Source: Gemmatimonadaceae bacterium
GTDB taxonomy: Bacteria; Gemmatimonadota; Gemmatimonadetes; Gemmatimonadales; Gemmatimonadaceae
DNA: 64,000 bases
NCBI GenBank assembly: GCA_019752115.1
Contig: JAIEMN010000019.1
Coordinates: 62,001 to 126,000, forward strand
Direction of reading: 5' to 3'
The notes below the pieces were generated by a model, which made no database searches, had not been told where the DNA came from, and was given only the letters and a program-made list of their open reading frames with translations. The stretch's first letter is position 1. Each line of letters starts with the position of its first letter. Below are positions 18,495 to 42,810 of the stretch, piece by piece. A program made the position numbers and the translations under genes.

Positions 18495-18568
18495 CGGGGC
18501 GTAGCTTAGCCCGGTAGAGCGCCTGCTTCGGGAGCAGGAGGTCGCTGGTTCAAATCCAGTCGCCCCGA
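18495..18568 (+). tRNA. tRNA-Pro (CGG), island integration target
   Basis: A 74-nt cloverleaf. Acceptor CGGGGCG pairs with CGCCCCG, anticodon stem CCTGC/GCAGG around loop TTCGGGA (anticodon CGG), T-arm CTGGTTCAAATCCAG, discriminator A. Its 3' 44 nt plus three further bases are repeated exactly at 42751-42797, showing that an element integrated at the 3' end and restored the tRNA. Confidence 0.97.
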
Positions 18569-18571
18569 CTG
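18525..18571 (+). repeat. attL: left 47-bp direct repeat of the island
   Basis: A 47-bp stretch running from the anticodon stem of tRNA-Pro to three bases beyond it, identical to 42751-42797. The flanking bases differ on both sides (T against G on the left, A against T on the right), so the repeat is exactly delimited. Confidence 0.93.
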
Positions 18572-18582
18572 AGAGAAGATAG

Positions 18583-18759: not shown

Positions 18760-19716
18760 CTACACCCACCGCTTTTCCGCCGCGAGACCACCCAAGCCGA
18801 CTCTGGCGCAATGCTCGCCGAGACGCCGTAGCCTCCCGCGAGCCCCCGAAGCTTCTGCCGCTCGAACGATCTGACGTTCGGAACTGACCACGTAGACTGG
18901 CGCCCCGAAGAAGACATTTCCGGGCCGCAACAGCGCCCGATGGTCGATGAGGGCACAGACATGCGAGTCCCAGACGCTGTTCGCATGCTTCGATTTGCTC
19001 GGGTCAATCTCGCCCCCGGCCGACAAGACCAGTTGGTTATGAATGAAAGCGATCGACGTGCCGGCGTGCTCCAGCATCCACTCAGCCTCCGGCGCGAGAA
19101 TCGACTCAGGCGAGTCCTCATCGATGTGGGGGTGGAACATCGCAAGGATTTCCGCGGTGAACGTACTCCCACGCTCACGGAGGAACCGCATGGTCTCGAG
19201 CTGGGCCTCTCGATCCGATTCCACGTTCGCGTGAGCTTTCATCAACTCGGCACCGTCCGATGCCGCCTTCGCGAGAGACGCCCCGTATGCCTCTTCTCGC
19301 GCCAGAACCCAAGCGCGAATCTCCTCGCACGCCTCTGCAAGCTCAGGCTCCAGTGGCAGCTTCTGCACCTCGGCAAGCCGCAGCAAGAACGTTCCCAGCC
19401 ATCGGACAAACGCCTCATCCGATCTCGTGTTGTCAAATGCTACAAGCCGCTGATCGATTGGGGATCGAACGAAGGGGATGTACGTGCCGTGATCCCATAT
19501 TTGCGTAAGCCGCGTCAAGGCGACCACACCGTTGAGCCCCGCCACGGCATCCACCGGATCGGCGCCGCCAATCGCGCTGATCAACTCGAGAGCGACGATC
19601 GTCGAGGCCAGGCTCGCGATCGAATGCTTACGGTGAGCGGCGACGAGCTCGTCAACGTGACGGCGCCCCACACTTCGAAGCGCATTTGTATCAAAGATCA
19701 CGACCTCGCGAGGCAT
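18760..19716 (-). CDS. PIN-like domain protein
   Basis: 318 residues. The N-terminus VVIFDTNALRSVG has the first catalytic Asp of PIN-type metal-dependent RNases, a conserved Glu follows in STIVALELISAIGG, and a later Asp lies in NSVWDSHVCALID before the typical final strand and helix (VYVVSSERQIVRAAEASG). At over 300 residues it is longer than toxin PIN proteins (about 130) and has a large helical insert (about 110-240). It is the last gene of the minus-strand cluster starting at 24187, 13 bp after the PD-(D/E)XK-like gene. RNA cleavage as a defence effector is inference; no small antitoxin gene is adjacent. Confidence 0.65.
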   Translation of the reverse strand: MPREVVIFDTNALRSVGRRHVDELVAAHRKHSIASLASTIVALELISAIGGADPVDAVAGLNGVVALTRLTQIWDHGTYIPFVRSPIDQRLVAFDNTRSDEAFVRWLGTFLLRLAEVQKLPLEPELAEACEEIRAWVLAREEAYGASLAKAASDGAELMKAHANVESDREAQLETMRFLRERGSTFTAEILAMFHPHIDEDSPESILAPEAEWMLEHAGTSIAFIHNQLVLSAGGEIDPSKSKHANSVWDSHVCALIDHRALLRPGNVFFGAPVYVVSSERQIVRAAEASGARGRLRRLGEHCARVGLGGLAAEKRWV

Positions 19717-19729
19717 TAGGGCACACCGC

Positions 19730-20557
19730 TCATGGCTTTATCGTGCTGTTGGTCGCGATACCGTGGCGCGAGTTGAAAAAGAGGCATCGCTCGTAGAACT
19801 CTGTCAGCGCCGCAGCATCTTCGGCAGCATGGATCCTCACGTGGTTCAACACCGATTCCCACGAAATCAACTGTACGTCGATGGCCGACACGGTGGGAAG
19901 AAACGTCTGCTGGAACCATTCATCGCGGTCGCCATTGTAGGCGACAACCCGCGCCCGAACCACTTCGATGATGTGTTCCTTCTTGCAGCAATCGCCAAAA
20001 ACCCCGGCGTCGATCTGAGATGCGGGGGCCACCACCACGAAACCCGCGCGTATACCGGCAGGACTCACCCCTCCCTGCTGTAGAGCGGTAGCCAGACATG
20101 CCACATTTCGCGCCGCTTGATTGTATGTGGCGGCCCGCTTGGTCCCCGCTGAAAGCCCGGACATGAGCTTAGCCTCTACCACCACGAACTGCTTCGTCTC
20201 GTGGGCGGGGAGCACGTCGCCGCGCCCCGAGCCTCGCCGGGTCGCCCCAATAACCGCATCCGCGTGGGTGAAGGATTCCGCGAGCTCGTCGCCGCGGCGC
20301 CGCGGTAGAAACGCGGACGGCAAGAGGACCTCGGATCGCCATCCGTGCCCCGGTAAAACATCCAACGGGTGCTCGACCGGCGCCTGACGCGCAAACCAAT
20401 CAAGCACGAGTCGAAGCATCCATCCCTCGTTGTACAGTGCCGTCGGAGGCAGGATGCCCGCGCGGGTGCCTGAAGACAGGAACAGCTGCCCCACTCTTTC
20501 CAGCGCTGCTCCGAGGGGAGCGTGCGCTCCCGTATCTGCGTTATCTGATTTTGTCAT
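19730..20557 (-). CDS. PD-(D/E)XK nuclease-like protein
   Basis: 275 residues from the ATG at 20557. The central part shows a restriction-fold pattern: SFTHADAVIGATRRG supplies a candidate catalytic Asp, then KQFVVVEAKLMSGLSAG gives E-x-K on a hydrophobic strand, followed by a helix with NQAARNVACLATAL. The C-terminal half (RAGFVVVAPASQID, IDVQLISWESVL) looks like further alpha/beta structure. It starts 51 bp after the VirD4-like gene stop and ends 13 bp before the PIN-like gene. The probable role is DNA cleavage, but it could be a catalytically poor structural relative. Confidence 0.6.
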   Translation of the reverse strand: MTKSDNADTGAHAPLGAALERVGQLFLSSGTRAGILPPTALYNEGWMLRLVLDWFARQAPVEHPLDVLPGHGWRSEVLLPSAFLPRRRGDELAESFTHADAVIGATRRGSGRGDVLPAHETKQFVVVEAKLMSGLSAGTKRAATYNQAARNVACLATALQQGGVSPAGIRAGFVVVAPASQIDAGVFGDCCKKEHIIEVVRARVVAYNGDRDEWFQQTFLPTVSAIDVQLISWESVLNHVRIHAAEDAAALTEFYERCLFFNSRHGIATNSTIKP

Positions 20558-20608
20558 GCTGAATCATTATCCGAGGGGGCTGACAGTCACGCTACACCGC
20601 TACCGAAT

Positions 20609-21976
20609 TCATTGAAGCCTGACCTGCCCGTAGCCGAATCGTCCTTCCGAGAACCAGTAAGCCTGCCCTGTTTTCAGCATACTGATGGGTCGGACGGTCA
20701 GTACATGTGGGTATTCTACGACCGGTGGCCGGCTGATGAGCGTCAACCACGCGTTAGTCGTGTGGGGATCCGGCGACATGAACTGCACTCGCGTAGAGAG
20801 GTTCTCCATGATCGCCTGTGCCTCGAGCTCCTTGCCAGGACCGAGCGCCTGTACCAACGCGGCCTGACTCTGAGATGCGACGATCGCGTGCCCGGAAGCC
20901 GATCGCATAACGTCGAAGTACATCTCTTCCCCGCCGATAAACCGCTGGAACTCATCGGCAATGTAGAAGGCGCGTCGTTGCGGGACCCCGTGTGCATCGC
21001 ATGCGGCGCCCCGAATGATGGCCCGTAGATATGCTCGTTTGATCGCGCGACCAATCATCGCGTTCTCATCACTGATCTCGCGGGGCTGGTACGCCATCAA
21101 GAGTCCATCCCTGATCGCCTCGTCCATGCTGAGCCTATAGCGAGCCGACGGCCACGGGCTTGGGTCGAAGTCAATGCTGTCTTGGACGCGGGAGTCCGTC
21201 AGCGGTCCCAGCACAGAGGCAACCGTGCCGACCACGCTGGTTCCAGTCTCTGGCGCGAGACTGTGCACGCTCAGTAGGTCCGCGGGGTTGTATGTCGGAA
21301 CGTGCAGCTTGATCACCTGCGCGAGCTGCTGCGGAAGCAACTCGGATGTATCGTTGGACGTTCGCTGCAGCAGTCGACACAACGCCATGTATCGGCTCCA
21401 CGGCCGATCGTTTTGCAGCAATGATTCCGTAGCACCTGTTTTTCCACCGGCGCGCGAATCGAATACCTTTGCCAAAGCACGCCAAAGTAGCTGCTGTTGC
21501 AGTCGCGCCTCCTCCTCACACGTGGCCTCTGCATGGACGGTCGTGTCGAGCAGCAGGCACGCACGAAGCAACGATCGTGCGCTCGATCGCCAGAAAGGAT
21601 CGCGCGCGAAGGGAGTAGCACCCGGACTGAGGGCGAGCGCCTCGTCCAGGAGTACGCCCGCGTCCGAGCGGTCGATGGAATCGTCGTAGAATCGGATCGG
21701 TATGCTGCCCTCTTGACCCAAGATCAGGACGTGGTCGTCCATCGACTTGATCAGCTCACGCTTGGGATCAATCACGAGCATGCAGTCCCGTTTGCCTTTT
21801 TCTGAGCGCTCCCACTGCTGCCGCACCGCAGCAAGAATGGGGAGGATGGCCGACCGACTCTTCCCTGTCCCGCTCGCTCCGAGTATCAGGACACCCCGGT
21901 TAAGTGTCGAGCACTTCAAGTCAAGACCGATCGACGCAAGCTCCGGAACGCAGAACTCTTCGGTGTCCCGGCTCAT
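20609..21976 (-). CDS. VirD4/TraG-like (FtsK-HerA superfamily) ATPase
   Basis: 455 residues. Walker A is LILGASGTGKSRSAILPIL near residue 35, followed by MLVIDPKRELIKSM, typical of type IV coupling proteins (a DPK/DPR element). Walker B is RAFYIADEFQRFIG near 345, with the sensor stretch GHAIVASQSQAALVQAL after it. Unlike VirD4 it has no N-terminal membrane segments, so it would be cytoplasmic or tethered by partners. Its ATG overlaps the stop of the 127-residue gene (ATGA). It is encoded with a 4-TM protein and a VWA lipoprotein, suggesting an envelope-linked DNA- or protein-handling machine; no relaxase or VirB genes are present. Confidence 0.75.
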   Translation of the reverse strand: MSRDTEEFCVPELASIGLDLKCSTLNRGVLILGASGTGKSRSAILPILAAVRQQWERSEKGKRDCMLVIDPKRELIKSMDDHVLILGQEGSIPIRFYDDSIDRSDAGVLLDEALALSPGATPFARDPFWRSSARSLLRACLLLDTTVHAEATCEEEARLQQQLLWRALAKVFDSRAGGKTGATESLLQNDRPWSRYMALCRLLQRTSNDTSELLPQQLAQVIKLHVPTYNPADLLSVHSLAPETGTSVVGTVASVLGPLTDSRVQDSIDFDPSPWPSARYRLSMDEAIRDGLLMAYQPREISDENAMIGRAIKRAYLRAIIRGAACDAHGVPQRRAFYIADEFQRFIGGEEMYFDVMRSASGHAIVASQSQAALVQALGPGKELEAQAIMENLSTRVQFMSPDPHTTNAWLTLISRPPVVEYPHVLTVRPISMLKTGQAYWFSEGRFGYGQVRLQ

Positions 21977-22356
21977 GAGCGTCGACGGGTGCGGGGTTTG
22001 GTGGGGGCGTTGACACGAAACCCAATGGATCGGGTTACGGCCTCGCGCTTCGGCGCCGTACCGAGGAGCCTATCTCGCAGGGTCGATGGCCCCTCGATGC
22101 TCACCTGCATTCCCGTGGTCAGTTCGTCCGACAGTGACAACTTGAGGTGCTCAGCGGCGGCTGTTGTGACCTGCGCGGCACAGAACCGAAGCCTTACTTC
22201 CCCGTAGCAGTAGTAGTCGCGTGCCAAGCGAAGCAGCTCGGCGATTTCTACAGCGTGAGCGGCACGGAGCGCACCCGTGCACGCGATGTCAAGGCGTTCC
22301 GGGCGAAACGACGGGGTAATTGTACCGAGTGATGGCATCGGGCTGTTCGTCCTCAC
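21973..22356 (-). CDS. Small unknown protein of the VirD4/VWA cluster
   Basis: 127 residues from a GTG at 22356; an in-frame ATG at 22338 (MPSLGTITP) is an alternative. The middle is predicted helical (AVEIAELLRLARDYYCYGEVRLRF), followed by AQVTTAAAEHLKLSLSDELTTGMQVSIEG, and the C-terminus is strongly basic (APTKPRTRRRS). There is no signal peptide or recognised domain. It overlaps the VWA gene (GTGA) and the ATPase gene (ATGA) by 4 bp each, which indicates co-translation and probably a stoichiometric partner or adaptor. Confidence 0.6.
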   Translation of the reverse strand: MRTNSPMPSLGTITPSFRPERLDIACTGALRAAHAVEIAELLRLARDYYCYGEVRLRFCAAQVTTAAAEHLKLSLSDELTTGMQVSIEGPSTLRDRLLGTAPKREAVTRSIGFRVNAPTKPRTRRRS

Positions 22357-23123
22357 GAAAGGAGAGTGCTAATTGGGGCGGTCACGATATCGCTTGGACT
22401 GATCCGTAGACCCATCGATGTGAGGACGATGGTCCACCAGCGAATGAGCCCGGCGGTATCAAGTCGATGTCGGACTCCGACCATGCGGAGAGTGAGCAGA
22501 TCGGATGGTGCATGACACTGACCGAGCGCGCCGAGCCGTGCGGCGAGTGGAGCGGCCGTACGAGCATCCGGAATGCGACGCGCATGATTGATCAGCGGGG
22601 ATTCCTCAATGCCATCTGTGAGCAACACGGCGATCACGCGTGTACTCGCTACGTGTGACTCTGCGCGCTGCGCTCGCGCCAGGGTGGTGGCATGACACAC
22701 AGCGTCTACGAGCCGAGATTCCGGCGCGCGGCCGCGCTCCTGCACGGCGCGTTGTATGGCATCGACCACGGCCATATGGAGAGCGTGCCGACGTTCATCA
22801 GCCACCTCGGCATTGCGGCCGACCTCCAATCCAGCCCCCTGGACCCAAGCGTCGAGCCGTGTTCCAGGGAGCACGCTATCCAGCACCGGTCGTATTTCAC
22901 CCAGCTCTCGGCCAGTGGGAATGAGGAGCAGCCGGTCTCCGGCCCGCAGCTCGCGAGCGAGCTGCGCGATGGCTGCCGAGTCCTCCTCGATGCGGCGACT
23001 CGCTGACACGTCCACGTACACGGCCACGACGCGTCGCATCAGCAGTGGGGTCGGTCCTGGCGACGAGCAGGAGCATAGCAGCGAAAGCGCGGCGCACATC
23101 AGTATCGATTTGCGCCAGCTCAT
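22353..23123 (-). CDS. VWA-domain lipoprotein
   Basis: 256 residues from the ATG at 23123 (MSWRKSILMCAALSLLCSCSS), chosen because it begins a lipoprotein signal ending in LLCSC. The mature part is a von Willebrand A fold: VVAVYVDVSASRRIEED carries the metal-site DxSxS, and VIAVLLTDGIEESPL the TDG motif. VWA domains mediate metal-dependent protein contacts. The C-terminal stretch has a hydrophobic segment (IRWWTIVLTSMGLRIS). It overlaps the 4-TM gene by 4 bp and the 127-residue gene by 4 bp. It probably sits on the periplasmic or outer-membrane side of a complex with the membrane protein. Confidence 0.78.
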   Translation of the reverse strand: MSWRKSILMCAALSLLCSCSSPGPTPLLMRRVVAVYVDVSASRRIEEDSAAIAQLARELRAGDRLLLIPTGRELGEIRPVLDSVLPGTRLDAWVQGAGLEVGRNAEVADERRHALHMAVVDAIQRAVQERGRAPESRLVDAVCHATTLARAQRAESHVASTRVIAVLLTDGIEESPLINHARRIPDARTAAPLAARLGALGQCHAPSDLLTLRMVGVRHRLDTAGLIRWWTIVLTSMGLRISPSDIVTAPISTLLS

Positions 23124-24187
23124 CGTTCCGATGACCCGAAAGTGCCGATCGCCAGGACCGGAGCCCTGCCACCGTCGTCGTTGGGGCGACGGAGATTCAC
23201 GCGTTCCGGCTGCTCCGTCTTCAGCGCCGGCGGACAGTACACCGACCACCAGTAGTCGAGCGCGGACAGCGATTCATTGAGGCGAGCGTCCAGCTGCTGC
23301 TCGAACCGTCGTTCCCGTTCGTTGTCCTCCTGCAGCTGCCGGACGGTCCGTGCGAGCTGAGCTGTCAGTCGCGCCTCGCGTGCGGCCGCTGCGGAAAGCC
23401 CGGGGACAGGGTCTGCGCTGAGCCACCCAAGGATGCCAGGGAGACCGAGGAGGCACGCTTGTAGGCCAGCTCCAACGGCGACCGTAGCGAGGCGGTGGTC
23501 CGGTCGAGTATCGGGGATCGCGCCAAGGCGGCTTAATACAATCCCCACCCCAAGAACGCTGGGACCGATCAGGCATACTGCGATCGCGAGTCCGTCCTGC
23601 CAGCGCAGAGCTTGCGACCATGTCGCGCGCCGAGCCAGTGTTCCCGCCCGATGCATTAGAAGGGCTGCGAGCGGAGCCGCGACCAGCGAGGCAAGGAGCA
23701 GAGGAACCGGCTGTTCCGGGAGGGTGGCCGAAAGGGCCGCGTACGTGAGCCAGCCCTCCGCTGCCAGAGCAACCGCCATGAGGAGGCCGACCGCGGAGCT
23801 TTCGCGGTCGGGAATTGCATGGTGTGGCAGCGCCGCCTGCAGGCGGCAACGTTCGTCAGCGGCGCGGCGGACGACCTCCTGGAGGGCATCGGCACGGGCA
23901 ATCCGGCGGGCCCTCATCCAGGCGCGGTGGCCTGGCTCACTCGCCAAGCTTAGTCGCTTACGGGCGCCGGTCAGCTGTCCCCGGGCGGCATCGATACCAT
24001 GGTGAACGGTTTCGGGATTGGCCGTCGACAGAGCCGCCCCCAGCCTGCGAGCGGAGGATGGATTAAGACGGACGCCGATCAGGCCGATCATCGTCCGGGC
24101 CCACGCGGCACGGATTCGGGACCATACGGCGGGGGAAGCGGAATGGCGCACTTCTAACACACAGGGCTCCTGGGTTGAGGGCGCCAC
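23120..24187 (-). CDS. Four-TM membrane protein with C-terminal coiled coil
   Basis: 355 residues from a GTG at 24187. The N-terminal 130 residues are Arg-rich and helical. Hydrophobic segments lie near residues 131-150, 158-175, 195-215 and 230-255. After the last one comes a heptad-like charged helix (AAAAREARLTAQLARTVRQLQEDNERERRFEQQLDARLNESL broken by few residues), then ALDYWWSVYCPP and a polar tail. No family was recognised. It is the first gene of the six-gene cluster, overlapping the VWA lipoprotein gene by 4 bp. A membrane scaffold role for the VirD4-like ATPase is inference. Confidence 0.65.
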   Translation of the reverse strand: MAPSTQEPCVLEVRHSASPAVWSRIRAAWARTMIGLIGVRLNPSSARRLGAALSTANPETVHHGIDAARGQLTGARKRLSLASEPGHRAWMRARRIARADALQEVVRRAADERCRLQAALPHHAIPDRESSAVGLLMAVALAAEGWLTYAALSATLPEQPVPLLLASLVAAPLAALLMHRAGTLARRATWSQALRWQDGLAIAVCLIGPSVLGVGIVLSRLGAIPDTRPDHRLATVAVGAGLQACLLGLPGILGWLSADPVPGLSAAAAREARLTAQLARTVRQLQEDNERERRFEQQLDARLNESLSALDYWWSVYCPPALKTEQPERVNLRRPNDDGGRAPVLAIGTFGSSER

Positions 24188-24421: not shown

Positions 24422-25096
24422 ATGCGGTTTTTTCACGCCCTTCTGGGGAGCCCGACGGCACGCCTATGGTGGATCATGACACCACCGCATTCATACTGGC
24501 CGACCTGGCTCTCCGTCCTTCGGGTACTCAAGAGCCTTGGTGACGACGCCCCTGTGACACTCGAGTCTTTTCGGGCCACGGGGGAAGAGCACGTTTGGCA
24601 CTGGGCAGTACGAGCCCGTGGCCCAGACGGTCCCAGTGGACCACACCCCGGACCCAGCCCATGGCTAACGCTTGTCGCTGGCCAATGCGCTCGCGACGTC
24701 CGGATTGCCCTGCCGCTCTTCGTGGCCAACCGATGCCTGCCACGAGTCACCGTCAAAGACATCACCCAAGAAGCGATTCGGAGCCCCGACCTTCAGCGCC
24801 GGCATCGGCTGGGGTACATGGTGGCCGGAGCACTTGCCAAGCATCCGGACGATTGGCGGTGGCTATCAGAGCTGCTTTCAGCGCTCGACCCAGACCCCTT
24901 CGGCGGGGACGGGGACGACAGCCGCGACGTGCTTGAGGATCTCTTCGGCGATCGGCCACGCAGTGCAGCCAAACGGAGCCCATCCGCAGATCCCCCAAAG
25001 GCTCCACCAATCAGTGTGTCGGGCTCGCCTCAGTCCGGGGGGCACACGCGCTCTACACGCCCAGTCCTGAGGAGGCTTCGTGAGAGAGATCAATAA
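24422..25096 (+). CDS. Unknown island protein, 224 residues
   Basis: No family was recognised. The first 180 residues are Trp/Leu-rich and look globular (PTWLSVLRVLKSLGDD, WLTLVAGQCARDVRIALPLF, RHRLGYMVAGALAKHPDDWRWLSELLSAL), followed by an acidic patch (DPFGGDGDDSRDVLEDLFGD) and a disordered Pro/Ser/Arg tail. There is no signal peptide or clear membrane segment. It is transcribed away from the VirD4/VWA cluster and overlaps the next gene by 17 bp, so the two form an operon. The start is uncertain, since no strong ribosome site is visible. Confidence 0.5.
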   Translation: MRFFHALLGSPTARLWWIMTPPHSYWPTWLSVLRVLKSLGDDAPVTLESFRATGEEHVWHWAVRARGPDGPSGPHPGPSPWLTLVAGQCARDVRIALPLFVANRCLPRVTVKDITQEAIRSPDLQRRHRLGYMVAGALAKHPDDWRWLSELLSALDPDPFGGDGDDSRDVLEDLFGDRPRSAAKRSPSADPPKAPPISVSGSPQSGGHTRSTRPVLRRLRERDQ

Positions 25097-25691
25097 ATTG
25101 CTCCGATTGCTTTCGACTCGAGCGACGCATCATCCACCGTTATCGGCGTCATGGGCGGTAACGGAGAGCGTCTTTGGCCTTACGCTGGGCGGCGACACGC
25201 TATTCGCCGCCACCATCAATGCGCCTGTCGAGACCATGCACAGCCTCGTCCTTATCGAGGCGTGGTCTGAAGCGGGGTGCGTAGACACTCGTGAGATCCA
25301 GCCGGATCGGATCGGCAGCAATCATTTTGGGATCGCGGCGATCTACTTCGGTGCCTGTACTCGACAAATCGACCACGTGCGCATCCGTTGCGCAGGGCTC
25401 GAAGGGGCACCTTTGCTAGTGCGGCGTCCACCGATCACTGATCGAACACGGATCGTACTTGTGCTGGGACGGCCGGTGCTGATTCCCGGCGCACTGCACA
25501 TGCTGCGGCTACGCGACGGCGAAATGCTCCATGATCGGCACTGCCCTATGCTCCGGTGGATATCGGACTCGCGACTGATGCCCGCGTCGCGACTCGAGGA
25601 CATTCTGGGCTGGCCAGTACGCACCTGCCAGATCTGTCTTCCCCTACCGCCCCGATTGTGCGGTCAAAGCGCAGCGACGCTCGAACCGTGA
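25080..25691 (+). CDS. Unknown island protein, 203 residues
   Basis: The protein has repeated beta-strand-like segments (SVFGLTLGGDTLFAATI, MHSLVLIEAWSEAG, TRIVLVLGRPVLIPGALHMLRL) and a Cys-bearing C-terminus (RTCQICLPLPPRLCGQ). No domain was recognised. It starts inside the end of the 224-residue gene (17-bp overlap) and ends 29 bp before the convergent nuclease gene, so it belongs to the two-gene divergent unit. Confidence 0.5.
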   Translation: MREINKLLRLLSTRATHHPPLSASWAVTESVFGLTLGGDTLFAATINAPVETMHSLVLIEAWSEAGCVDTREIQPDRIGSNHFGIAAIYFGACTRQIDHVRIRCAGLEGAPLLVRRPPITDRTRIVLVLGRPVLIPGALHMLRLRDGEMLHDRHCPMLRWISDSRLMPASRLEDILGWPVRTCQICLPLPPRLCGQSAATLEP

Positions 25692-25719: not shown

Positions 25720-26808
25720 TCATAGCGCCTCAAGCTTTTCCGGGCTGGTGAAGGCATTCAGTTTAATGCTCGGACGCCGCCTTAGTGCACCCGGAGGAAT
25801 GGAGTTCGGGACAATCGCATTGAGCTCGGCTGCAATTGATTCGCGCGCTGACTCATCGGCGAACTCGGGCTTTCGAGCCAGCCACTGGAACTGGACCTCC
25901 ATTGCTCCAGTGGTCCAAAGGCCGAAGATCTGGTAGCTCAGGCCATTGGCATCGATCACTGGGAAGCAGGATCCTGCGGTCTTGCCCTGCCCCCACCAAA
26001 AGCGCGCGTGATTCTTCATACCCCAATCGACGAGCGCCCGCGCGACGGGAATCGCTGCTGAATCCGTCCTCGAGAGCGCGGCAAAAAAGCTCTCTTCGGT
26101 CCACTGTGTGGCACCATTGCTGCCCGCCCCTTTTCGCTGCGCCGCCTCTGCCGTCTGCCCGATCACCGTTGGGATGATTGTGGTCATTCCGGAGGCTGCA
26201 TACTGCCGTAGCTCAATGGCGAGAACCTCAGCTGGGTCCATCTGCTGGTTGAGGAACTCCACAATGCGGCGAAGCTCCCGCGGTATCCGATCAGCCACAA
26301 AAACCAGTCGGATGCGGCCCGCCTGAAGATTGGTTTTGACCTGCTGCCAGAAAGCATCAACCCCACCAAGCGCTTCTCCGAAGGTGCCCTGCAAGGTGTC
26401 GCTTGGATCAACGCCGTCACGGACACACCGATTTTCGTACTCAGATCGGACACGTTCGACGGGCCAATAGGCTACTGCATTCGCGGCGTAGTCGAGCATC
26501 TGACCGACCACCTCCCGTCTGATCCGAAGATCACTTGCGCGTTTTACCTCGATCAGCGTGGGCACCCCATACTCATCGAGGAACAAGTGATCGAGTGACC
26601 AGCGGGACGATCCGTCCAGTTCGTCTGGTACCCCGACCTCGCGAGAGACCAGCAGCCATCGGCGAGGAGCACTCTCGTCTGTGGCTGTGCCGAGAAGCGC
26701 GGGGTATCTCGCGAGCAGCTCTTGAAGAGACGCTTCTGAGAGAAACGCCTGCTCTTCGAGCTCTGACAATTCGTTGGAAGCGTTCAGCAGGAAGATGCTC
26801 TGACTCAT
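25720..26808 (-). CDS. PD-(D/E)XK nuclease of the Hma-like defence operon
   Basis: 362 residues from the ATG at 26808 (MSQSIFLLNASNELSEL). Residues 65-115 show the restriction-fold core: WSLDHLFLDEYGVPTLIEVKRASDLRIRREVVGQMLDYAANA, with Asp in LDHLFLD and the E-x-K of IEVKR on the next strand, followed by the long helix seen in NucS/DUF91-like nucleases. The C-terminal half (TQWTEESFFAALSRTDS, WWGQGKTAGSCFPVID) resembles a substrate-sensing domain. It starts 7 bp after the helicase stop and is the last gene of the operon, so it is a likely DNA-cleaving effector. Confidence 0.75.
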   Translation of the reverse strand: MSQSIFLLNASNELSELEEQAFLSEASLQELLARYPALLGTATDESAPRRWLLVSREVGVPDELDGSSRWSLDHLFLDEYGVPTLIEVKRASDLRIRREVVGQMLDYAANAVAYWPVERVRSEYENRCVRDGVDPSDTLQGTFGEALGGVDAFWQQVKTNLQAGRIRLVFVADRIPRELRRIVEFLNQQMDPAEVLAIELRQYAASGMTTIIPTVIGQTAEAAQRKGAGSNGATQWTEESFFAALSRTDSAAIPVARALVDWGMKNHARFWWGQGKTAGSCFPVIDANGLSYQIFGLWTTGAMEVQFQWLARKPEFADESARESIAAELNAIVPNSIPPGALRRRPSIKLNAFTSPEKLEAL

Positions 26809-26815
26809 GATCTCG

Positions 26816-29800
26816 TCACGTGGGCCCAACTGTACTGACCAGCGGAAGCCTGGCAAGCGTGGAACGTGCCATCCAGCGAGGGTCCTTGATGGCGGCTTCG
26901 AGCGGAGTGGCAAGCAGCACATTCTTCCGCTGATTGGCGCTCAGCGACAGTGCCGCCCGCTCCGACTCCGCAACTTCGGCGTCCGACCACTCAGGGTAGC
27001 CGATCAGATCGTGCGCCTGCGCGAGGAGCGCGGCGACTTGCCCCCCACGCTGCATCCAGCGGTGGAAGGCTGCGTTGTAGTCTTGACCGGCGTCACGCGC
27101 ACACGCGAGGAAGCGCCCAACCTCGCGACGAAGCCTGACCGATGCGGCCTGCACCTGTCGTTCAAGCCCGGCGCGTTCTTCATCAAGGGCACGTCGCGCC
27201 ATAGCTGCAACCAGTTCGCTCGCACGACTGCGAGCTGCCGCATGAGCGGCCTGCCAGTCCTTGTCGGACACGGGCTGGCCATTCCACTGTCCCAAGAGCG
27301 CTTCGAGTCGTTCCGCACGGTCCAGCAACTCCGGGCCCTCCACGCTCGCCCATGCCGCGACTGCGACACGAAACGCGTCCTGCTCCACCACTGCAACAAC
27401 CAGCGGAAGCAGGTCCCCAGACCCCTCGCCGATAGGTTGTAGTCGGCGGAATACTGGATCGAACGGTGATAGCGGCAGTGTCTCCGTGCTCCCCGCCAGT
27501 TCACGCGCAGTCACGACTGCCCGTCGACGCCCGTTGGGCGTTTCCACCTCGCCATGCGCACGAATTCCGGAGAACGCACGGGCAAGGTCATGAATGGTTA
27601 CTCCTGGGGGAAATGCCGGCGGGGGTGGGAGTTCATTGGTAGAAAACGCAGCCGCAGCGAGGTGATCCGCTTTCGCTCGGTCGACCTCGGAGTTCAGCGC
27701 CTCCGACGAGAATGGTTCAATACCGAGCAGCATCCGTCGCGCCACAGAGAGCACAGGCTGCATGGTGCCGACGAACGTTCGGAAGAGATCGCATCGTTGC
27801 CCCAAGACCGTGTACACGCGCTCGTCCACACTGTCTTTGAGGAGAAGGTTGACGATTCGAAGCACCCCGGCCTTTTGCCCGATGCGATCGATACGGCCGA
27901 TACGCTGCTCCACTCGTGCTGGGTTCCATGGCAGGTCATAGTTGATCAGCGCGCTGGCGGACTGCAGGTTGAGCCCTTCGCTCGCGGCATCTGAGCATAG
28001 GAGCACCCGGATGTTGCCTTGCGCGAGCCGTTCCGTGATGGTGGCCTTCGATACCTGGACCCATTTTCCGTCCTCGCGCACTGTACCACCCTCCCCCGTG
28101 TAGCAGGCGAGCGCGCTACCGTAACGTGGCACCAAGGCATCTCTCAGATAACTCACTGTATCCGTGAACTCTGAGAACACCAGGCAAGGGCGACCGTCGT
28201 CGGTCGCCAAGTCGAGTGCACGCGCGAAGTGCTCGAGCTTGGAGTCACGCCCCTGCAGCGCCCGCAAGCGTTCCAGCAATCGCGTGACGTCTCGAAGCTC
28301 GGATCGAGCAACGACAGGGTCTTCGGGAAGCGACGACGGCAGGCGCATCGTCCGTTCCGCACCGATCAGTTCATCTAGGTCCTGCTGATCAGACGCTTCG
28401 ATCTCATCCACCTGGGATGCAGCCGCGCCCTTGATTACAAGCTCCAATCCATGGCGGCGACGCTCAAGGCTGCGCTCAAGCGCCATCGGCGAACTGGCGG
28501 CACGACGTCGGTAGACCGTCATGACAAAGCCCTTCCCAGGTCGCTCCGCCTCCAGCTGAGCAAACCGACGCTCTACGTACGTCTGAACGCCGTCATAGAC
28601 CTCTCGTTCTTCCACGGTCGCAAAGTCATACGAGACATCCTGAATAGCACGATCAGCGGGCGGACGGTCGATGAGCCCCATGGCGAAATACGTCCGCAGC
28701 GTGGCTCTGGTGTTCCGATGCATCCGCCGTCCGAGCGGGGCACCATCGCGCAGTGCTCTCGTGATACGGCTTCGCTCGGCCCCTGGGGCTACGAAAAGCT
28801 TGGTAGGAAGGTGCTCAGGTACGGCCGGCAGAGCGGGGAAACTACTGTCCATCCCGACGATGGCACTGACGGCGCGCCCCTTTTCCAAGGGAAGTGGGCC
28901 TTTCTCGGCCATATCCAGCGCCCCGTAGAAGTCGCGGACCACACGGAAATCGGCCATCCAGGGTGCCCCCTCACCGAGCACGCCGAGGAGATCCCATGGC
29001 TCCCACGGTTGCGTCTGCATTGGGGTGGCACTGAGCAAGAGGAGACTGCGCGCCTGCCCTCGCAGCTGCAGGCTACGCAACAGCCCAAGCAGCAGCGTGG
29101 CCGAGTTGTACTCGGTCTCCACCTGGCTCGCGCGGCGGGCCGCATGTGCTTCGTCAAGCAGCACCAGGTCCCAGCGGGGGGCCTGCATCAGCACCTCCGC
29201 GTTCTGCTCAAGGCGCGCCAGTTCTCGGCTTACGAGCAGAACCGGCTCGCGCAGCGCATCCGCAAAGCTGTCGCGCTGCTGTACGCGCCCATCCGGCCAC
29301 ACCAATGTGCTCTGTCCCTCCAGTCTCGGAACGAGCAGCCCGCCTTTCTCGCGGAGCTCGCCCTGCCACTGGCCTACAATGCCGGCGGGTACAAGGAGCA
29401 ATGCGCGCCTCACCCCGCGACCCGCCAGGAGGCGACGAAGGACCATGATCGCTTCCACGGTCTTGCCCATGCCTACTTCGTCGCAGAGCAGTCGGCCGGC
29501 AGGCCACGCCTCCGCGCTCTCTTCGACGACACGCATCTGGTGCGGCCATAGCGCCACGTCTGGCGCCGTGGCATCACAATTTCGCCCACCTTCGGGGAAC
29601 CACGGGGCTTCGATTGCAAACCGCCACCGCATTGCCGCTTCATCGCGCTGGCGCCCTGTGAGGGGCACCGGCATCTGCGGTCCAGTCGGCACCATGGCAG
29701 GTTGATCCGCTGACGGCTCCGCGTAGCGGATGAGATTCTGGCGTACGGCCTCCGGCAGCGCGATCACCGCCAATTGTGGGTCGTTGCCGTTCCACATCGT

Positions 29801-30394
29801 TTCAAACTCGAGGCGATAGTGCTCGAATCGTTCTCGGTCATCCCAGCTGCCACTCAGCTCGAGGCTCTCGAAGTTCTGTGTGAGGCCCGATGCCGATTCG
29901 TTGCTACTCCCGCTGAACACCAGAGTATCGCCCGCGGCATCGGCGACGAGACCGAATTTGGCATGGAGAATACCGCGACCTGATCGGAGCACGCCGACGC
30001 GCACCTCGAGCAGGCCGCGCTGCACGAGCAACCCCAAGAGCGCCAGACGCTCGGCTTCCAGCGCATCCCGTGGTTCTACCAGCCCCCGCGACAAGCGCTC
30101 AGCCAGCGCGTCGGCCCCGTGGGCATACAGCATCGCATCGACGTCATCCTGTGAGAGCTCTTCGTTCACGAGCAAACGCACAGGCGGCGCTGATGGAGAC
30201 GGAGTGAGCGCCAGCAGGCGGTCTACGAACGGCGCAAACCCTCTTGCGGCAGCGGCGAGTACACTGGAGGAGAAATAGGCACAGCAGCGATCGTAGCTGA
30301 CGGCTTCGCGAAGCGCCGGCTCGTAAAGCTCTGTGACGAGGCGAGGATCAGGCCCCTTGAGAAACCGGGGCCAGTCCCGTTCGCGGAGCCCCAT
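26816..30394 (-). CDS. PLD-domain plus SNF2-type helicase (defence)
   Basis: 1192 residues. The first 210 residues are a phospholipase D-like domain (SYDRCCAYFSSSVLAAAARGF; HAKFGLVADAAGDTLVFSGSSNES gives HxK, then Asn/Ser/Glu) with one clear HKD-type motif. Then comes a superfamily 2 helicase: LLCDEVGMGKTVEAIMVL (Walker A), LVLLDEAHAARR (DEAH), LLLLSATPMQT (SAT), LVFSEFTDTVSYL and QRIGRIDRIGQK (motif VI), as in SNF2/RapA-like ATPases. A long C-terminal helical region follows. Its ATG directly follows the methylase stop (TAGATG). It probably translocates on invading DNA; the PLD part may bind or cleave it. Confidence 0.88.
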   Translation of the reverse strand: MGLRERDWPRFLKGPDPRLVTELYEPALREAVSYDRCCAYFSSSVLAAAARGFAPFVDRLLALTPSPSAPPVRLLVNEELSQDDVDAMLYAHGADALAERLSRGLVEPRDALEAERLALLGLLVQRGLLEVRVGVLRSGRGILHAKFGLVADAAGDTLVFSGSSNESASGLTQNFESLELSGSWDDRERFEHYRLEFETMWNGNDPQLAVIALPEAVRQNLIRYAEPSADQPAMVPTGPQMPVPLTGRQRDEAAMRWRFAIEAPWFPEGGRNCDATAPDVALWPHQMRVVEESAEAWPAGRLLCDEVGMGKTVEAIMVLRRLLAGRGVRRALLLVPAGIVGQWQGELREKGGLLVPRLEGQSTLVWPDGRVQQRDSFADALREPVLLVSRELARLEQNAEVLMQAPRWDLVLLDEAHAARRASQVETEYNSATLLLGLLRSLQLRGQARSLLLLSATPMQTQPWEPWDLLGVLGEGAPWMADFRVVRDFYGALDMAEKGPLPLEKGRAVSAIVGMDSSFPALPAVPEHLPTKLFVAPGAERSRITRALRDGAPLGRRMHRNTRATLRTYFAMGLIDRPPADRAIQDVSYDFATVEEREVYDGVQTYVERRFAQLEAERPGKGFVMTVYRRRAASSPMALERSLERRRHGLELVIKGAAASQVDEIEASDQQDLDELIGAERTMRLPSSLPEDPVVARSELRDVTRLLERLRALQGRDSKLEHFARALDLATDDGRPCLVFSEFTDTVSYLRDALVPRYGSALACYTGEGGTVREDGKWVQVSKATITERLAQGNIRVLLCSDAASEGLNLQSASALINYDLPWNPARVEQRIGRIDRIGQKAGVLRIVNLLLKDSVDERVYTVLGQRCDLFRTFVGTMQPVLSVARRMLLGIEPFSSEALNSEVDRAKADHLAAAAFSTNELPPPPAFPPGVTIHDLARAFSGIRAHGEVETPNGRRRAVVTARELAGSTETLPLSPFDPVFRRLQPIGEGSGDLLPLVVAVVEQDAFRVAVAAWASVEGPELLDRAERLEALLGQWNGQPVSDKDWQAAHAAARSRASELVAAMARRALDEERAGLERQVQAASVRLRREVGRFLACARDAGQDYNAAFHRWMQRGGQVAALLAQAHDLIGYPEWSDAEVAESERAALSLSANQRKNVLLATPLEAAIKDPRWMARSTLARLPLVSTVGPT

Positions 30395-33370
30395 CTATTC
30401 CTCCTCCTCCTCTTCCTCCTCGTCGGTATCGTCTACTTCCGTTTCATCCTCCGCGTCGTCGGCCGTGGCCGCAAAGAGCCCCAGCTCCGACTGATCTGGA
30501 ATCTTCTCCGTCCAATCGGGGGCCGGGATTCCGAAGAGTGGGAACAGCAAGGCATGCCACGCACGGAACTCGGGAAACTTCGCGGCGGCGCTAGTCTTGC
30601 CACGTTCAATCCGCACACCGTGCGGCGCTGCCTGCACAAGCGCGGCGAGCAGCCTCGCCACCGCCGAATCCTTGTCCCAGCCTTGTTGACGGGCCAACGA
30701 GCGCGCAGCACCGATTCCTGCGGCCCCGCCGCCAGCATCTATGTATCGCATAGCTAGCGCGTGGCAACCGTCGATCGCCGTTCGGAAGGCCTGATCATTG
30801 GGGTGCACCTTTCCACCTTTTCCCGCGTCCGACGCATCGTCTGCAGCCTGGGGACGTCGCCGGTCTCGGGCCGACAGCATCGTGATGTTGTCCGCCTTTC
30901 GGCTCACGAGCCCAGCATCCGCCAGCTGCCCAACATCCATACCTACTGCGTGCCCCAACAACTTTGCTTCATTGAAGCGAAATTCCGCCGCACCCAGCAC
31001 GTCCCAGCAGAGCAATGCAAACCGTCCTTCGGGCTCGACCCCTTCGAGACCGCGGCTCGCCAATTGTTGAATGCGCCAGCTGCTCACCGCATCGGAGGCC
31101 AAATCGATGGCGCGATCGACCCCAACTTCATCGCCAGTATCGGTGAAGACCTCCGCGTAACGACTGTAGACTTCGAGAGCAGGACCAAACGAACCAACTA
31201 GCTGGTCCACCGCATTCAGCCCCTCCTTCTGCAGTCGATCCGCCGCCGCCTCTGCGCGCTGACGGATCTCCGTCTGCATAGACCGATCGAAGTAGCCCGC
31301 CCCCGCTTGCGGATCACGCTTGCGCGCCACCAGTACGACAGTGCTCTGCGCTGCGTTCTTCTTGGCTTGGTGCAGACTGTGCTCGCTCTCCGTCTTGATC
31401 GGCCATGTAGCCGTAATGGTGAACCCAGAATGGATCAGCGCGGTGAACAGCGCCTCCCAAGCCTCCTGCTTCTTGTGAGTGAACATCACCGTCAGCACAC
31501 CGTCGTCCGCTAGTACCCGATGGCACTCGCGGAACGAACCGGTCATCATTTCGCGATAGTGATTTCGTGCCTTATCTCGTGCAGCTTTCGCCGTCTCACC
31601 TTCATCGCGAAACCTGCTGACATTGACCACGGCCTCTTCGTCGTGGTCACACAGGTACCCCGCAAACCAGTCGGGATGACGGTGCCCTTGCGTTCGTTTA
31701 AGCCAGACGTAGAAGAAATCGGCCAGCTCAGAATACTGAACGTTGTCATCATAAGGCGGATCAACGACGACAGCCGAGAGTGAGCGGTCCGAAATAGACG
31801 GCAGCGAGGTAGCTGAGCCGAGAGTCGTGGTAACAGCTCTCGCCTCTGGTGCACGCGGGAGACCAGCGATTTGCTCCCATGCCTCAACCACACTTCGTAT
31901 GGCCCACTCCAGACCGGCGCCTGCACCGCAGGGAGACATCTCGGCGTAAGTAGCCTTCCATGCGAAGTCATGACGATCAAAAACGCTTCGTAGGGTTTGG
32001 GCTTTCACATTCCACGACGAAAGGCCTGCGTTCCAATTGGCGAATTTGTCGATCACGAACGCCAACAAGTGCTCAATCGCTGCTGCGCGCTCCTCGCCCT
32101 CCTTGCTGATGATTTCCGAGCGCAATGAATTGAGCTCCTCGACGAGCACACACATTGCGAGCAGTTGGCGATCTGAGAACATGTCCGCCCACCGCGGCAT
32201 TCCGTAGTTGCGCGGCCGAGGGTCACTTGACACCGATGGATATAGCTCGGTTGGGAGAATCCCACCACGTTCCCAGGATGAGCGATACTTTTTCAGTTCA
32301 GCCGAAGCTGATGCGATCGCCACCAGATCTTGCTGGACTGGTGGTTCGAAGGTGAGTCCTTGTGGCAGCTTCACTGCTACGGCATACAGGTGGCTTCGCA
32401 TTTCACCGGCTTGCGCCTTGGCTTTGATGTAATCGGCCGGGATCACATTGCCGGTGAAAAGGGATACCCCTTTCCCCTTTTTATATGTCGGGGGCGGTTG
32501 ATGCCGTAGCTGACCGCGGCCCTCCCCAATCTCTCGGACGCGCACCGTCCACGTGCCCTTGCCTTCATCGACCACCGGCTCAGCCACGACCTGCCGACCA
32601 GCTCGGGGCTTAAGGAGTGACCAATCAGGCACGAGGGGCGTGTCGTATCCGGTATCTGGACAGGGAACCGTCCGAGCGAAGAGAAACGTGTGGCGCGGGA
32701 TCTTGTCCTTGCTGGGAAAGAATTGCTCCATCCTGCTGTTGAATCGTTTACGCCACTCGGAGCCCCAGCGTCGCGCTGCCTCTGCTAGAGTTTCATCGAA
32801 CCGAAACGGATACTCTAAGGTCGCCTCAAGAACCGAACAGGCGACGGGGTTGTATTCGTTTGCAAGCGTACGAATTCCAAGGCGAGCGGCTTCGAGCGGT
32901 ATGGAGCCACCACCGGCCATCGGGTCGATCAGGGCGACGTCTCTCCCCCACAATCTCTCCATGGCCTTGTGGGCGGCTTGAATGTCCCTCTCAAGGATGG
33001 GACGTCGGAATGCACGCGCACCGTGTGGATTCGGCACCTTTTTCCCGGCCGCACGCGCCCAGTCAAGATACCGCTGAGCACTCTGGACCTGTTGTGACGT
33101 CCCCCAGAACCCCAACAATCGCTCAAATGCGTCTCTAGGAAAGTCTGCTGGCAGAAGTGAGCCAAGCACTGCGGCCCGAGCGGCTGTCAGGGGTCGCCGC
33201 GCCCACCAAACGTGGAGGCGCTTGTCAGGTGGCTGCTGGCCCGTTGCCCTCTCCCGGATGCACTCAACACCGATGGCCGACGCTGGCAGCCACTCTTCGA
33301 TGAGCAGCCGCGGCCGCCCCGCCGTGCCCGTTATCGCGCTTGTTGAGTTGTCGCTCTTCATCGCAGTCAC
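30395..33370 (-). CDS. DUF1156-type adenine-specific DNA methylase
   Basis: 991 residues. The N-terminus is the DUF1156 signature (LLIEEWLPASAIGVECIRERATGQQPP, LHVWWARRPLTAARAAVL). SAM-binding motif I follows (LIDPMAGGGSIPLEAARLG) and the catalytic motif IV DPPYDDNVQYSELADFFYVWLKR near residue 548, the DPPY of amino-methyltransferases. Such large methylases are known mostly from defence islands. The start is the GTG at 33370, overlapping the 143-residue gene (GTGA), or the ATG at 33361. The protein ends in an acidic tail with eight final Glu residues, whose GAG/GAA codons create a Shine-Dalgarno-like tract for the helicase gene. It presumably marks self DNA. Confidence 0.92.
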   Translation of the reverse strand: MTAMKSDNSTSAITGTAGRPRLLIEEWLPASAIGVECIRERATGQQPPDKRLHVWWARRPLTAARAAVLGSLLPADFPRDAFERLLGFWGTSQQVQSAQRYLDWARAAGKKVPNPHGARAFRRPILERDIQAAHKAMERLWGRDVALIDPMAGGGSIPLEAARLGIRTLANEYNPVACSVLEATLEYPFRFDETLAEAARRWGSEWRKRFNSRMEQFFPSKDKIPRHTFLFARTVPCPDTGYDTPLVPDWSLLKPRAGRQVVAEPVVDEGKGTWTVRVREIGEGRGQLRHQPPPTYKKGKGVSLFTGNVIPADYIKAKAQAGEMRSHLYAVAVKLPQGLTFEPPVQQDLVAIASASAELKKYRSSWERGGILPTELYPSVSSDPRPRNYGMPRWADMFSDRQLLAMCVLVEELNSLRSEIISKEGEERAAAIEHLLAFVIDKFANWNAGLSSWNVKAQTLRSVFDRHDFAWKATYAEMSPCGAGAGLEWAIRSVVEAWEQIAGLPRAPEARAVTTTLGSATSLPSISDRSLSAVVVDPPYDDNVQYSELADFFYVWLKRTQGHRHPDWFAGYLCDHDEEAVVNVSRFRDEGETAKAARDKARNHYREMMTGSFRECHRVLADDGVLTVMFTHKKQEAWEALFTALIHSGFTITATWPIKTESEHSLHQAKKNAAQSTVVLVARKRDPQAGAGYFDRSMQTEIRQRAEAAADRLQKEGLNAVDQLVGSFGPALEVYSRYAEVFTDTGDEVGVDRAIDLASDAVSSWRIQQLASRGLEGVEPEGRFALLCWDVLGAAEFRFNEAKLLGHAVGMDVGQLADAGLVSRKADNITMLSARDRRRPQAADDASDAGKGGKVHPNDQAFRTAIDGCHALAMRYIDAGGGAAGIGAARSLARQQGWDKDSAVARLLAALVQAAPHGVRIERGKTSAAAKFPEFRAWHALLFPLFGIPAPDWTEKIPDQSELGLFAATADDAEDETEVDDTDEEEEEEEE

Positions 33371-33798
33371 TGTGTAGCCTCAGTAAGGATTCGGAGTGCG
33401 CGGATGGCTCGGCGGCCGTCACGTCGCGTCATTGCCGCCAACCACCAAGCAGCTTCGGTGCCATCTGCCTCTTTAAGGTGGCCTGCCGACTTGGCGAGTC
33501 GGCCGCCGTTTCGCAGCCCACGAGAGACGAGCGTGTAGCACGCCACGCGTGCGCCCCAGTCAGCGTCGAGCGGGTGATAGGGCCCCGTGGCGAGACGCAC
33601 GCCGGCGGTGCCCCCGGAATTGCGGACCGCCGTGCGCAACAGCGGCATGGCAGCGCTGAAGGCCAATGGCGAAATCGCACCGATGCGTGTGAGCCGCTCT
33701 ACCCGCTTCGCAGTGAGCGTCCGTCGGTACAGGATGCCCGCGTCACCGCTGCGACGTCGCACCACGCGAAGCGCAAAGGAGGCCTCACGTACGTTCAC
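33367..33798 (-). CDS. Small protein between DUF499 and DUF1156 genes
   Basis: 143 residues from a GTG at 33798. It is Arg/Ala-rich and mostly helical (RRTLTAKRVERLTRIGAISPLAFSAA, WGARVACYTLVSRGLRNGGRLAKSAGHLKEADGTEAAWWLAAM, with basic clusters), so it may bind nucleic acid or bridge its neighbours. It overlaps the gene on each side by 4 bp (GTGA both times), a firm sign that it is a genuine component of the operon. I do not recognise the family; small helper genes at this position are usual in DUF499/DUF1156 operons. Confidence 0.7.
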   Translation of the reverse strand: MNVREASFALRVVRRRSGDAGILYRRTLTAKRVERLTRIGAISPLAFSAAMPLLRTAVRNSGGTAGVRLATGPYHPLDADWGARVACYTLVSRGLRNGGRLAKSAGHLKEADGTEAAWWLAAMTRRDGRRAIRALRILTEATQ

Positions 33799-37604: not shown

Positions 37605-38069
37605 ATGGACCGTTCCTCGTCGCTCGAACTGGCGCTCACCCGCCCTGCGGGGGGCTTGCCCCAACGCACGGCCGATAAGGCGGCCGCTCAAACCGCCCAG
37701 ACCGCCCAGCAAGATCTTGGGGAGACCGAAACCAAGCCGAAGGCGGGTGCGCCTGACCGATTCGTTTCGGCGGCCGCGCTCCGCGCCGGTCTGTCCGAAT
37801 GGCGGGAGCAGCTTGAGCAGGCTGCCGTCCAGTTCCGGGTGGATGTCGACACGCAGCTCCATATGCTCGCCCGCTTCCATGGCCTGATCGAGAAGCTCTC
37901 CCGCGCTCCGGAGCAGATGTCGAGCCGAGAAGTGGCGGCTGCACAGGGCTGCTCAGTTCGGACCGCGCGCCGAAAGCTCGCCGAGATCAAGAAGAAGGGC
38001 CTGATCTACAATGCGGACAAGGCGCGCGCCGGCGCCCAGCGCCGGAACAGCCTGGGGGCCTCGCGATGA
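37605..38069 (+). CDS. HTH protein translationally coupled to the integrase
   Basis: 154 residues. The N-terminus (1-55) is low-complexity Ala/Gln/Thr. Residues 60-105 form amphipathic helices (LRAGLSEWREQLEQAAVQFRVD). Residues 107-140 hold a winged-HTH-like motif (MSSREVAAAQGCSVRTARRKLAEIKKKGLI). Its stop overlaps the integrase start by 4 bp (ATGA). Position and size suggest a partner of the recombinase, such as a directionality factor or a DNA-bending accessory protein, or a repressor of the unit; which of these cannot be told. Confidence 0.65.
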   Translation: MDRSSSLELALTRPAGGLPQRTADKAAAQTAQTAQQDLGETETKPKAGAPDRFVSAAALRAGLSEWREQLEQAAVQFRVDVDTQLHMLARFHGLIEKLSRAPEQMSSREVAAAQGCSVRTARRKLAEIKKKGLIYNADKARAGAQRRNSLGASR

Positions 38070-40826: not shown

Positions 40827-41191
40827 AAGTTCTCGGCTAGAATTCGCTGTTCATCTGCAGGAAGCGTCTCGGTCTGTGAGTGGAGTCTCCGCGCGATGCT
40901 GTTCAACTCGTTGACCACATCTGAGGTGTCGATCTTCCTCGCAAAACTGACCCCTAAACCGGTCTCATCAACACGAGAGCGAATGTATGTCGCGTACTCG
41001 GGAAGCACGATCTCCGGACCGTTGAAGTCCCTTGGATTGGGGATGTAGAAATGGTCGCCTACGCTCGGACTAACCATGGCCGGCCCAGGTAGCTCTCGCG
41101 TTCCCAGCGTAAACAACGCGGTGGCGAGAGTTGCTGCCGTGTCCAGGCGGGTGTAGCCCGTTGAGAATGTGGCGTTAGTTGCGGGAGTCAT
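40808..41191 (-). CDS. Unknown protein, second gene of the TIGR04255-like operon
   Basis: 127 residues. The middle is strand-rich (PGPAMVSPSVGDHFYIPNP, GPEIVLPEYATYIRSRVDETGLGVSFARKID) and the end helical (DVVNELNSIARRLHSQ, DEQRILAENFWSLL). No domain was recognised. It overlaps the TIGR04255-like gene upstream by 4 bp (ATGA) and the following gene by 19 bp, so the three are translated together. Confidence 0.6.
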   Translation of the reverse strand: MTPATNATFSTGYTRLDTAATLATALFTLGTRELPGPAMVSPSVGDHFYIPNPRDFNGPEIVLPEYATYIRSRVDETGLGVSFARKIDTSDVVNELNSIARRLHSQTETLPADEQRILAENFWSLLA

Positions 41192-42750: not shown

Positions 42751-42797
42751 GCTTCGGGAGCAGGAGGTCGCTGGTTCAAATCCAGTCGCCCCGACTG
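42751..42797 (+). repeat. attR: right 47-bp direct repeat of the island
   Basis: Identical to 18525-18571. It holds the 3' 44 nt of a tRNA-Pro (anticodon loop, variable and T-arm, acceptor 3' strand, discriminator) with no 5' half, so it is not a functional tRNA gene. Confidence 0.93.
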
Positions 42798-42810
42798 TGA
42801 TAAATAGAGA

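What the first reader, a model, noticed from the sequence alone, without database searches (positions are those of the whole stretch)
18760..24187. Candidate undescribed system: 4-TM protein, VWA lipoprotein, small basic protein, VirD4-like ATPase, PD-(D/E)XK and PIN proteins
Six same-strand genes, four of them overlapping by 4 bp (starts/stops at 23120-23123, 22353-22356, 21973-21976), join an envelope-associated pair to a soluble VirD4/TraG-like ATPase and end in two nuclease-like proteins. No relaxase, VirB4 or pilus gene is present, so this is not a working conjugation system. The combination could be an envelope-anchored DNA-sensing defence machine. The module matches no named defence system known to me.
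Basis: partly seen in the sequence, partly recalled or inferred. Interest (0 to 1): 0.72.

Follow-up and report, generated by a model that had tools for sequence, protein, structure and literature searches.

The report
Membrane-linked VirD4 ATPase with half-ClpP
A small, repeatedly inherited gene cassette in Gemmatimonadaceae bacteria joins a DNA-pump-like ATPase to a stripped-down relative of the ClpP protease and to two envelope proteins, and travels next to known anti-virus systems; it is probably an undescribed defence module, but that function is untested.

Summary
TM4, VWA lipoprotein, small protein and soluble VirD4-family ATPase overlap by 4 bp each and recur together at every Gemmatimonadaceae locus long enough to show them, down to about 34% identity, except one natural deletion copy. 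VWA never occurred without the ATPase among 298 genomes. The PD-(D/E)XK-like and PIN-like genes are accessory: one other genome has them. New here: the "small basic protein" is most likely the N-terminal half of a ClpP-like protein. Beta-proteobacterial relatives of the ATPase are each followed by a full-length ClpP-like peptidase; the small protein matches its N-half (hhalign E 4.6e-7), not the STAS or housekeeping-ClpP controls, and lacks the active site. The cassette sits in a 24.2-kb tRNA-Pro island beside an Hma/BREX-related system; relatives lie beside DISARM, type III restriction or CBASS. VirB4 is absent from 11 host genomes and MobA/VirD2-type relaxase from the six Gemmatimonadaceae ones. 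No PADLOC system fits; the ATPase weakly resembles Mad8. Defence by an envelope-anchored ATPase complex is the likeliest reading, but untested: an uncharacterised, rare variant of the ATPase-plus-partner theme.

The parts
23120..24187 (-). TM4: 355-aa protein with four TM helices flanked by long helices (core)
   Evidence: homologues in L010, L012, L013 (frameshifted there), L015 (cut by contig end), L017
22353..23123 (-). VWA-type lipoprotein, 256 aa; lipobox-like SLLCSC, invariant DxSxS and DG motifs (core)
21973..22356 (-). half-ClpP: 127-aa relative of the N-terminal half of the VirD4-linked ClpP-like family, no catalytic Ser/His, SPGG lost (core)
20609..21976 (-). soluble VirD4/TraG-family ATPase, 455 aa, Walker A GASGTGKS, Walker B DE (core)
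19730..20557 (-). PD-(D/E)XK-like protein (motif level), accessory; present in one other locus (G250)
18760..19716 (-). PIN-like protein (motif level), accessory; present in one other locus (G250)
24422..25096 (+). divergent conserved gene of unknown fold, part of the module (homologues beside VirD4 in L010, L011, L013, L015, L017)
25080..25691 (+). second divergent gene, shared only with L017
18525..18571 (.). att-like repeat: 47-bp exact direct repeat, 3' part of tRNA-Pro gene (18495-18569 +)
42751..42797 (.). second copy of the 47-bp att-like repeat; other end of the 24.2-kb island

Best explanation
A mobile, accessory defence-island module. Shown: four overlapping genes conserved as a unit (4-TM protein, VWA-type lipoprotein, half-ClpP, soluble VirD4-family ATPase) plus a conserved divergent gene, inside a tRNA-Pro island next to a known defence system. 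Inferred: the VirD4-like protein forms a cytosolic hexameric ATPase of the HerA/FtsK class; the half-ClpP, related to a ClpP-like peptidase that still sits beside the ATPase gene in beta-proteobacteria, keeps only a non-catalytic role (an adaptor or ring cap for the ATPase); the 4-TM protein docks the complex to the inner membrane and the VWA lipoprotein senses or binds a ligand on the envelope side. On phage attack the assembled ATPase would act on incoming DNA or protein and, in the tRNA-Pro clade, work with the PD-(D/E)XK-like and PIN-like proteins as nuclease effectors. The confidence given is for a defence-island module built round this ATPase and its ClpP-fold partner; the detailed wiring is perhaps 0.25.
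For: Core synteny and open frames over deep divergence; VWA found only in genomes that have the ATPase; half-ClpP matches the ATPase-linked ClpP family at E 4.6e-7, prob 92.6%, against prob 0.9% for STAS and nothing for housekeeping ClpP, with a shared YYxY motif; ATPase and ClpP-like genes adjacent in six beta-proteobacterial loci. Defence neighbours: Hma in the window, DISARM in G250 at the same tRNA site, type III restriction in G079, type II CBASS in Limnohabitans. att repeat. Patchy: 6 of 395 phylum genomes, with a natural 3.8-kb deletion copy in this genome. ATPase weakly matches Mad8 of MADS. Precedent for an ATPase hexamer working with a dedicated partner: DUF4297-HerA (PMC11291478).
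Against: No activity was measured. The L013 locus and its deletion copy L011 have no defence neighbour in the stretch read. Defence-island location does not prove defence. VWA, PIN and PD-(D/E)XK calls are motif-level. Structure search cannot separate a ClpP half from a STAS fold; STAS chains fit well (Z up to 9.9), and the profiles behind the ClpP match are shallow (Neff about 2). Beta-proteobacterial hosts G404 and G405 carry a relaxase 8.8 and 22 kb from the ATPase.
Confidence: 0.5

Rival explanations
1. Part or remnant of a mobilisation machine: the VirD4-like protein is the coupling protein of an integrative mobilisable element, with TM4 and VWA as its membrane adaptors.
For: Family relationship to TraG/TrwB; element integrated at tRNA-Pro; relaxase 8.8 kb from the ATPase in G404 and 22 kb in G405.
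Against: No VirB4-type gene in 11 hosts and no PF03432 relaxase in the six Gemmatimonadaceae hosts; no matches on 72,556 plasmid records; the ATPase lacks the N-terminal TM helices usual in coupling proteins; a ClpP-fold partner is not a known coupling-protein feature.
Confidence: 0.15
2. A non-immune envelope stress or quality-control machine: ATPase plus ClpP-like peptidase (or its inactive half) handling envelope or membrane proteins, carried by genomic islands.
For: ClpP-like partner with invariant Ser and His in beta-proteobacteria; an M41 peptidase gene close to it in L019 and a homologous-looking HEAGH protein in L020; chromosomal context of L013 away from defence genes.
Against: Patchy distribution, repeated placement beside different defence systems, natural deletion, the same tRNA site with different defence cargo.
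Confidence: 0.2
3. Accessory genes of the neighbouring Hma/BREX-related system rather than a separate system.
For: Same island, next to the Hma genes, separated by a PDC-S11-like gene and two divergent genes.
Against: The same core occurs with DISARM, with type III restriction or with no defence neighbour, without the Hma genes.
Confidence: 0.05

Closest known systems
VirD4-like ATPase + ClpP-like peptidase pair of beta-proteobacteria (L019, L020, L022-L024, L057; unnamed)
   Same: Related ATPase (24-33% identity) encoded next to a ClpP-fold protein; island setting, once beside type II CBASS
   Different: There the ClpP-like protein is full length with invariant Ser/His and follows the ATPase gene; most of those ATPases have about 200 extra N-terminal residues; TM4 and VWA genes were not seen beside them
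MADS defence system (Mad8 ATPase)
   Same: The window ATPase hits the mad8 profile (E 7e-12)
   Different: No other mad gene matched among the island proteins scanned
HerA-DUF4297 / HerA-Sir2 defence systems
   Same: Theme of a HerA/FtsK-class ATPase with a dedicated partner
   Different: ATPase is TraG/VirD4-like, the partner is a ClpP-fold half, and two envelope proteins are added
Type IV coupling proteins (VirD4/TraG/TrwB)
   Same: Shared ATPase domain family
   Different: Soluble; no VirB4 genes in the host genomes; no PF03432 relaxase in Gemmatimonadaceae hosts
Hma / DUF499-centred BREX-related systems (PMC12839542)
   Same: Neighbour in the same island (26816-36719)
   Different: Separate genes; the module occurs without them elsewhere

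Membership tests
Type IV coupling protein / conjugation system | VirD4/TraG-type ATPase domain | tested here: met
   Pfam TrwB_AAD_bind 3.7e-6 above cut-off
Type IV coupling protein / conjugation system | N-terminal TM anchor on the coupling protein | tested here: not met
   no hydrophobic segment in the window protein or in L023
Type IV coupling protein / conjugation system | VirB4-family ATPase in the element or genome | tested here: not met
   PF03135 absent from 11 host genomes
Type IV coupling protein / conjugation system | relaxase | tested here: inconclusive
   PF03432 absent from six Gemmatimonadaceae hosts but present 8.8 and 22 kb from two beta loci; other relaxase families not tested
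MADS | Mad8-like ATPase | tested here: met
   mad8 profile E 7.4e-12, 43 bits; a weak match
MADS | mad1-mad7 genes in the same locus | tested here: not met
   no other mad hit among the island proteins scanned
HerA-DUF4297 / HerA-Sir2 | HerA ATPase with DUF4297 or Sir2 partner | tested here: not met
   no PADLOC HerA hit for the window ATPase up to E 0.1 and no such partner
ClpP-like family linked to VirD4 | homology to the ClpP-like N-half | tested here: met
   hhalign E 4.6e-7, prob 92.6; controls negative
ClpP-like family linked to VirD4 | catalytic Ser and His | tested here: not met
   the match ends before these positions; SPGG motif absent
STAS domain | sequence-profile match to STAS | tested here: inconclusive
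   prob 0.9% against four STAS proteins of the same genome, but the predicted fold is compatible with STAS
Anti-phage defence system (any) | reduces phage infection | not testable with these tools
   needs plating assays

The most novel reading that the evidence does not exclude
VirD4-class ATPases have founded a family of immune machines by pairing with ClpP: in beta-proteobacteria an ATP-driven peptidase built on a DNA-pump-type motor instead of a Clp unfoldase, and in Gemmatimonadaceae a branch that discarded the catalytic half of ClpP, moved to the envelope with a VWA lipoprotein and a 4-TM protein, and in one clade borrows nucleases as effectors.
Probability: 0.25. Interest if true: 0.82.

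Novelty: new variant of a known kind. Interest (0 to 1): 0.6.

Why it matters
If true it would add an envelope-linked branch to the ATPase-plus-partner defence theme and would show a VirD4-type motor, known for moving DNA in conjugation, working with a ClpP-fold protein. The beta-proteobacterial two-gene version (ATPase plus intact ClpP-like peptidase) makes the question directly testable with two genes: does a DNA-pump-type ATPase feed or gate a ClpP-like peptidase?

Tried and rejected
The single-sequence scan of genome contigs found nothing; the alignment version found the beta-proteobacterial relatives. No hits in plasmids, phages, or for the ATPase in viral contigs; two viral-contig hits to the ClpP alignment (L055, L056) show no VirD4-like gene among the called neighbours. 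STAS identity of the small protein was considered because the model fits STAS folds, then set aside on profile evidence. Fold search of TM4 gave nothing below E 0.001. Searches for the VWA, PIN-like and PD-(D/E)XK-like proteins among solved structures gave nothing useful. Substitution ratios: the half-ClpP pair and the VWA pair have too few differences to judge (6 and 8); ATPase, PIN-like and PD-(D/E)XK-like genes look under purifying selection (dN/dS 0.10-0.20). Literature searches for a ClpP plus VirD4 defence pair found no description in the open-licence library; subscription papers and preprints are not held, so the absence is weak. Census limits: the genome searches sampled the phylum (395 and 298 genomes) and Pseudomonadota (398), scoring only the top few candidates per genome.

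Full report
Observation. The VWA gene most likely starts at 23123 (ATG), giving a lipoprotein signal with a lipobox-like SLLCSC. The TM4 protein has four predicted TM helices; its model shows long helices on both sides of them (pLDDT 72, pTM 0.49, so low confidence). The ATPase has a TrwB-type domain, Walker A and B residues invariant over six homologues, and no TM helix.

Host and setting. The window is contig C19:62001-126000 of a 5.17-Mb genome. A same-genus genome, G331, has a contig of the same length and content as the record titled 'Gemmatimonadetes bacterium isolate GEMMA1' (L021), which places the host in the Gemmatimonadota. A 47-bp exact direct repeat, the 3' part of the tRNA-Pro gene, lies at 18525-18571 and 42751-42797, so the module is the left part of a 24.2-kb tRNA-Pro island. 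The rest of the island holds an Hma-type triad: PLD-SNF2 helicase (26816-30394), DUF1156 methyltransferase (30395-33370, HmaB 3e-86) and DUF499 ATPase (33795-36719, HmaC 2e-68), the kind described as DUF499-centred BREX-related systems (PMC12839542).

Conservation. A search of 395 genomes of the phylum found the ATPase in six. TM4, VWA, small protein and ATPase recur in the same order in L010 (a second copy in this genome), L012, L013 and G250 (whose ATPase gene is split between two contigs, L016 and L017), and as far as the contig reaches in L015 (the small gene of L010 was found by reading the gap). The divergent gene 24422-25096 has homologues beside the ATPase in L010, L011, L013, L015 and L017, in either orientation. 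VWA searched alone in 298 genomes hit only genomes that have the ATPase. The PIN-like and PD-(D/E)XK-like genes are shared only with G250 (83-86% identity, same tRNA site), so they are accessory. L011, another site in this genome, is a copy of the L013 locus with a 3.8-kb deletion that removed TM4, VWA, the small gene and the 5' part of the ATPase gene.

Defence neighbourhood. Window: Hma. G250: drmA, drmB, drmC and a PDC-S34 gene, at the same tRNA site. G079: type III methyltransferase and restriction enzyme plus an HKD-SNF2 gene on one side and an integrase on the other. The L010 copy is followed by an integrase gene two genes further on. L013 has no defence neighbour in the stretch read. 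The association is suggestive but rests on four or five loci.

What the small protein is. A profile scan of GTDB contigs found relatives of the ATPase in Rhodoferax, a beta-proteobacterial MAG, Tepidicella, Limnohabitans and Comamonas, and a second copy in the MAG (L057). In all six loci the next gene encodes a ClpP-like protein (PF00574, E 1e-7 to 1e-13 in the four scanned; related to solved ClpP structures), with SPGG, the Ser of AxSAAA and a His invariant over the five aligned. The small protein aligns colinearly with residues 6-82 of that family (prob 92.6%, E 4.6e-7), sharing the YYxY signature, while STAS proteins of the same genome give prob 0.9% and its housekeeping ClpP nothing. Its model (pLDDT 79) has the strand and helix order common to STAS and to the ClpP core; structure searches list STAS and ClpP-fold proteases alike and cannot decide. 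Sequence profile plus gene adjacency favour a ClpP half that has lost the catalytic part. The caveat is that the profiles are shallow (Neff about 2).

Not conjugation. No VirB4-family gene in 11 host genomes. No PF03432 relaxase in the six Gemmatimonadaceae hosts; relaxase genes lie 8.8 kb (weak match, 210-aa frame) and 22 kb from the ATPase in two beta-proteobacterial hosts, so those islands may be mobilisable. No plasmid matches.

Mechanism. Shown: gene set, overlaps, conservation, profile match of the small protein to a ClpP half, island. Inferred: ATPase hexamer, half-ClpP as adaptor, membrane docking by TM4, envelope sensing by the VWA lipoprotein, nuclease action in the tRNA-Pro clade, and defence as the purpose. 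The closest precedent for an ATPase hexamer that becomes active with its partner is DUF4297-HerA (PMC11291478); this is an analogy, not a test.

Novelty. No PADLOC system fits; there is only a weak mad8 hit for the ATPase. No description of a VirD4-ClpP defence pair was found in the searchable literature, which is incomplete. I rate it a new variant of the ATPase-plus-partner theme.

Noticed in passing
window 26816-36719 (-): Complete Hma / BREX-related triad (PLD-SNF2 helicase, DUF1156 methyltransferase, DUF499 ATPase), with a PDC-S11-like protein at 25720-26922.
   Followed up: partly
window 18519-18577 and 42745-42803: tRNA-Pro att-like direct repeat bounding a 24.2-kb island; the island's integrase was not identified (38066-39523 + has no Pfam, PADLOC or PHROG hit but looks recombinase-like by eye).
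   Followed up: partly
L019:7686-14482 and L020:7215-16011: Shared block of a ~650-aa protein, VirD4-like ATPase, ClpP-like peptidase, a ~90-aa ORF and an M41-family peptidase (PF01434 3.6e-20 in L019) in two different chromosomal surroundings.
   Followed up: partly
L011:9651-9652 versus L013:5975-9803: Clean 3.8-kb deletion of most of the module in another site of the window's own genome.
   Followed up: yes
L013 about 7690: TM4 gene is split by a frameshift in G331 (low-coverage assembly, so possibly a sequencing error).
   Followed up: partly
window 40200-41925 (-): Three genes (208, 127 and 245 aa) at the right end of the island with no Pfam or PADLOC match, in a stretch of lower G+C (0.55).
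   Followed up: no
L010:5143-7020 (-): 625-aa protein between the module and an integrase gene, no Pfam or PADLOC match.
   Followed up: no
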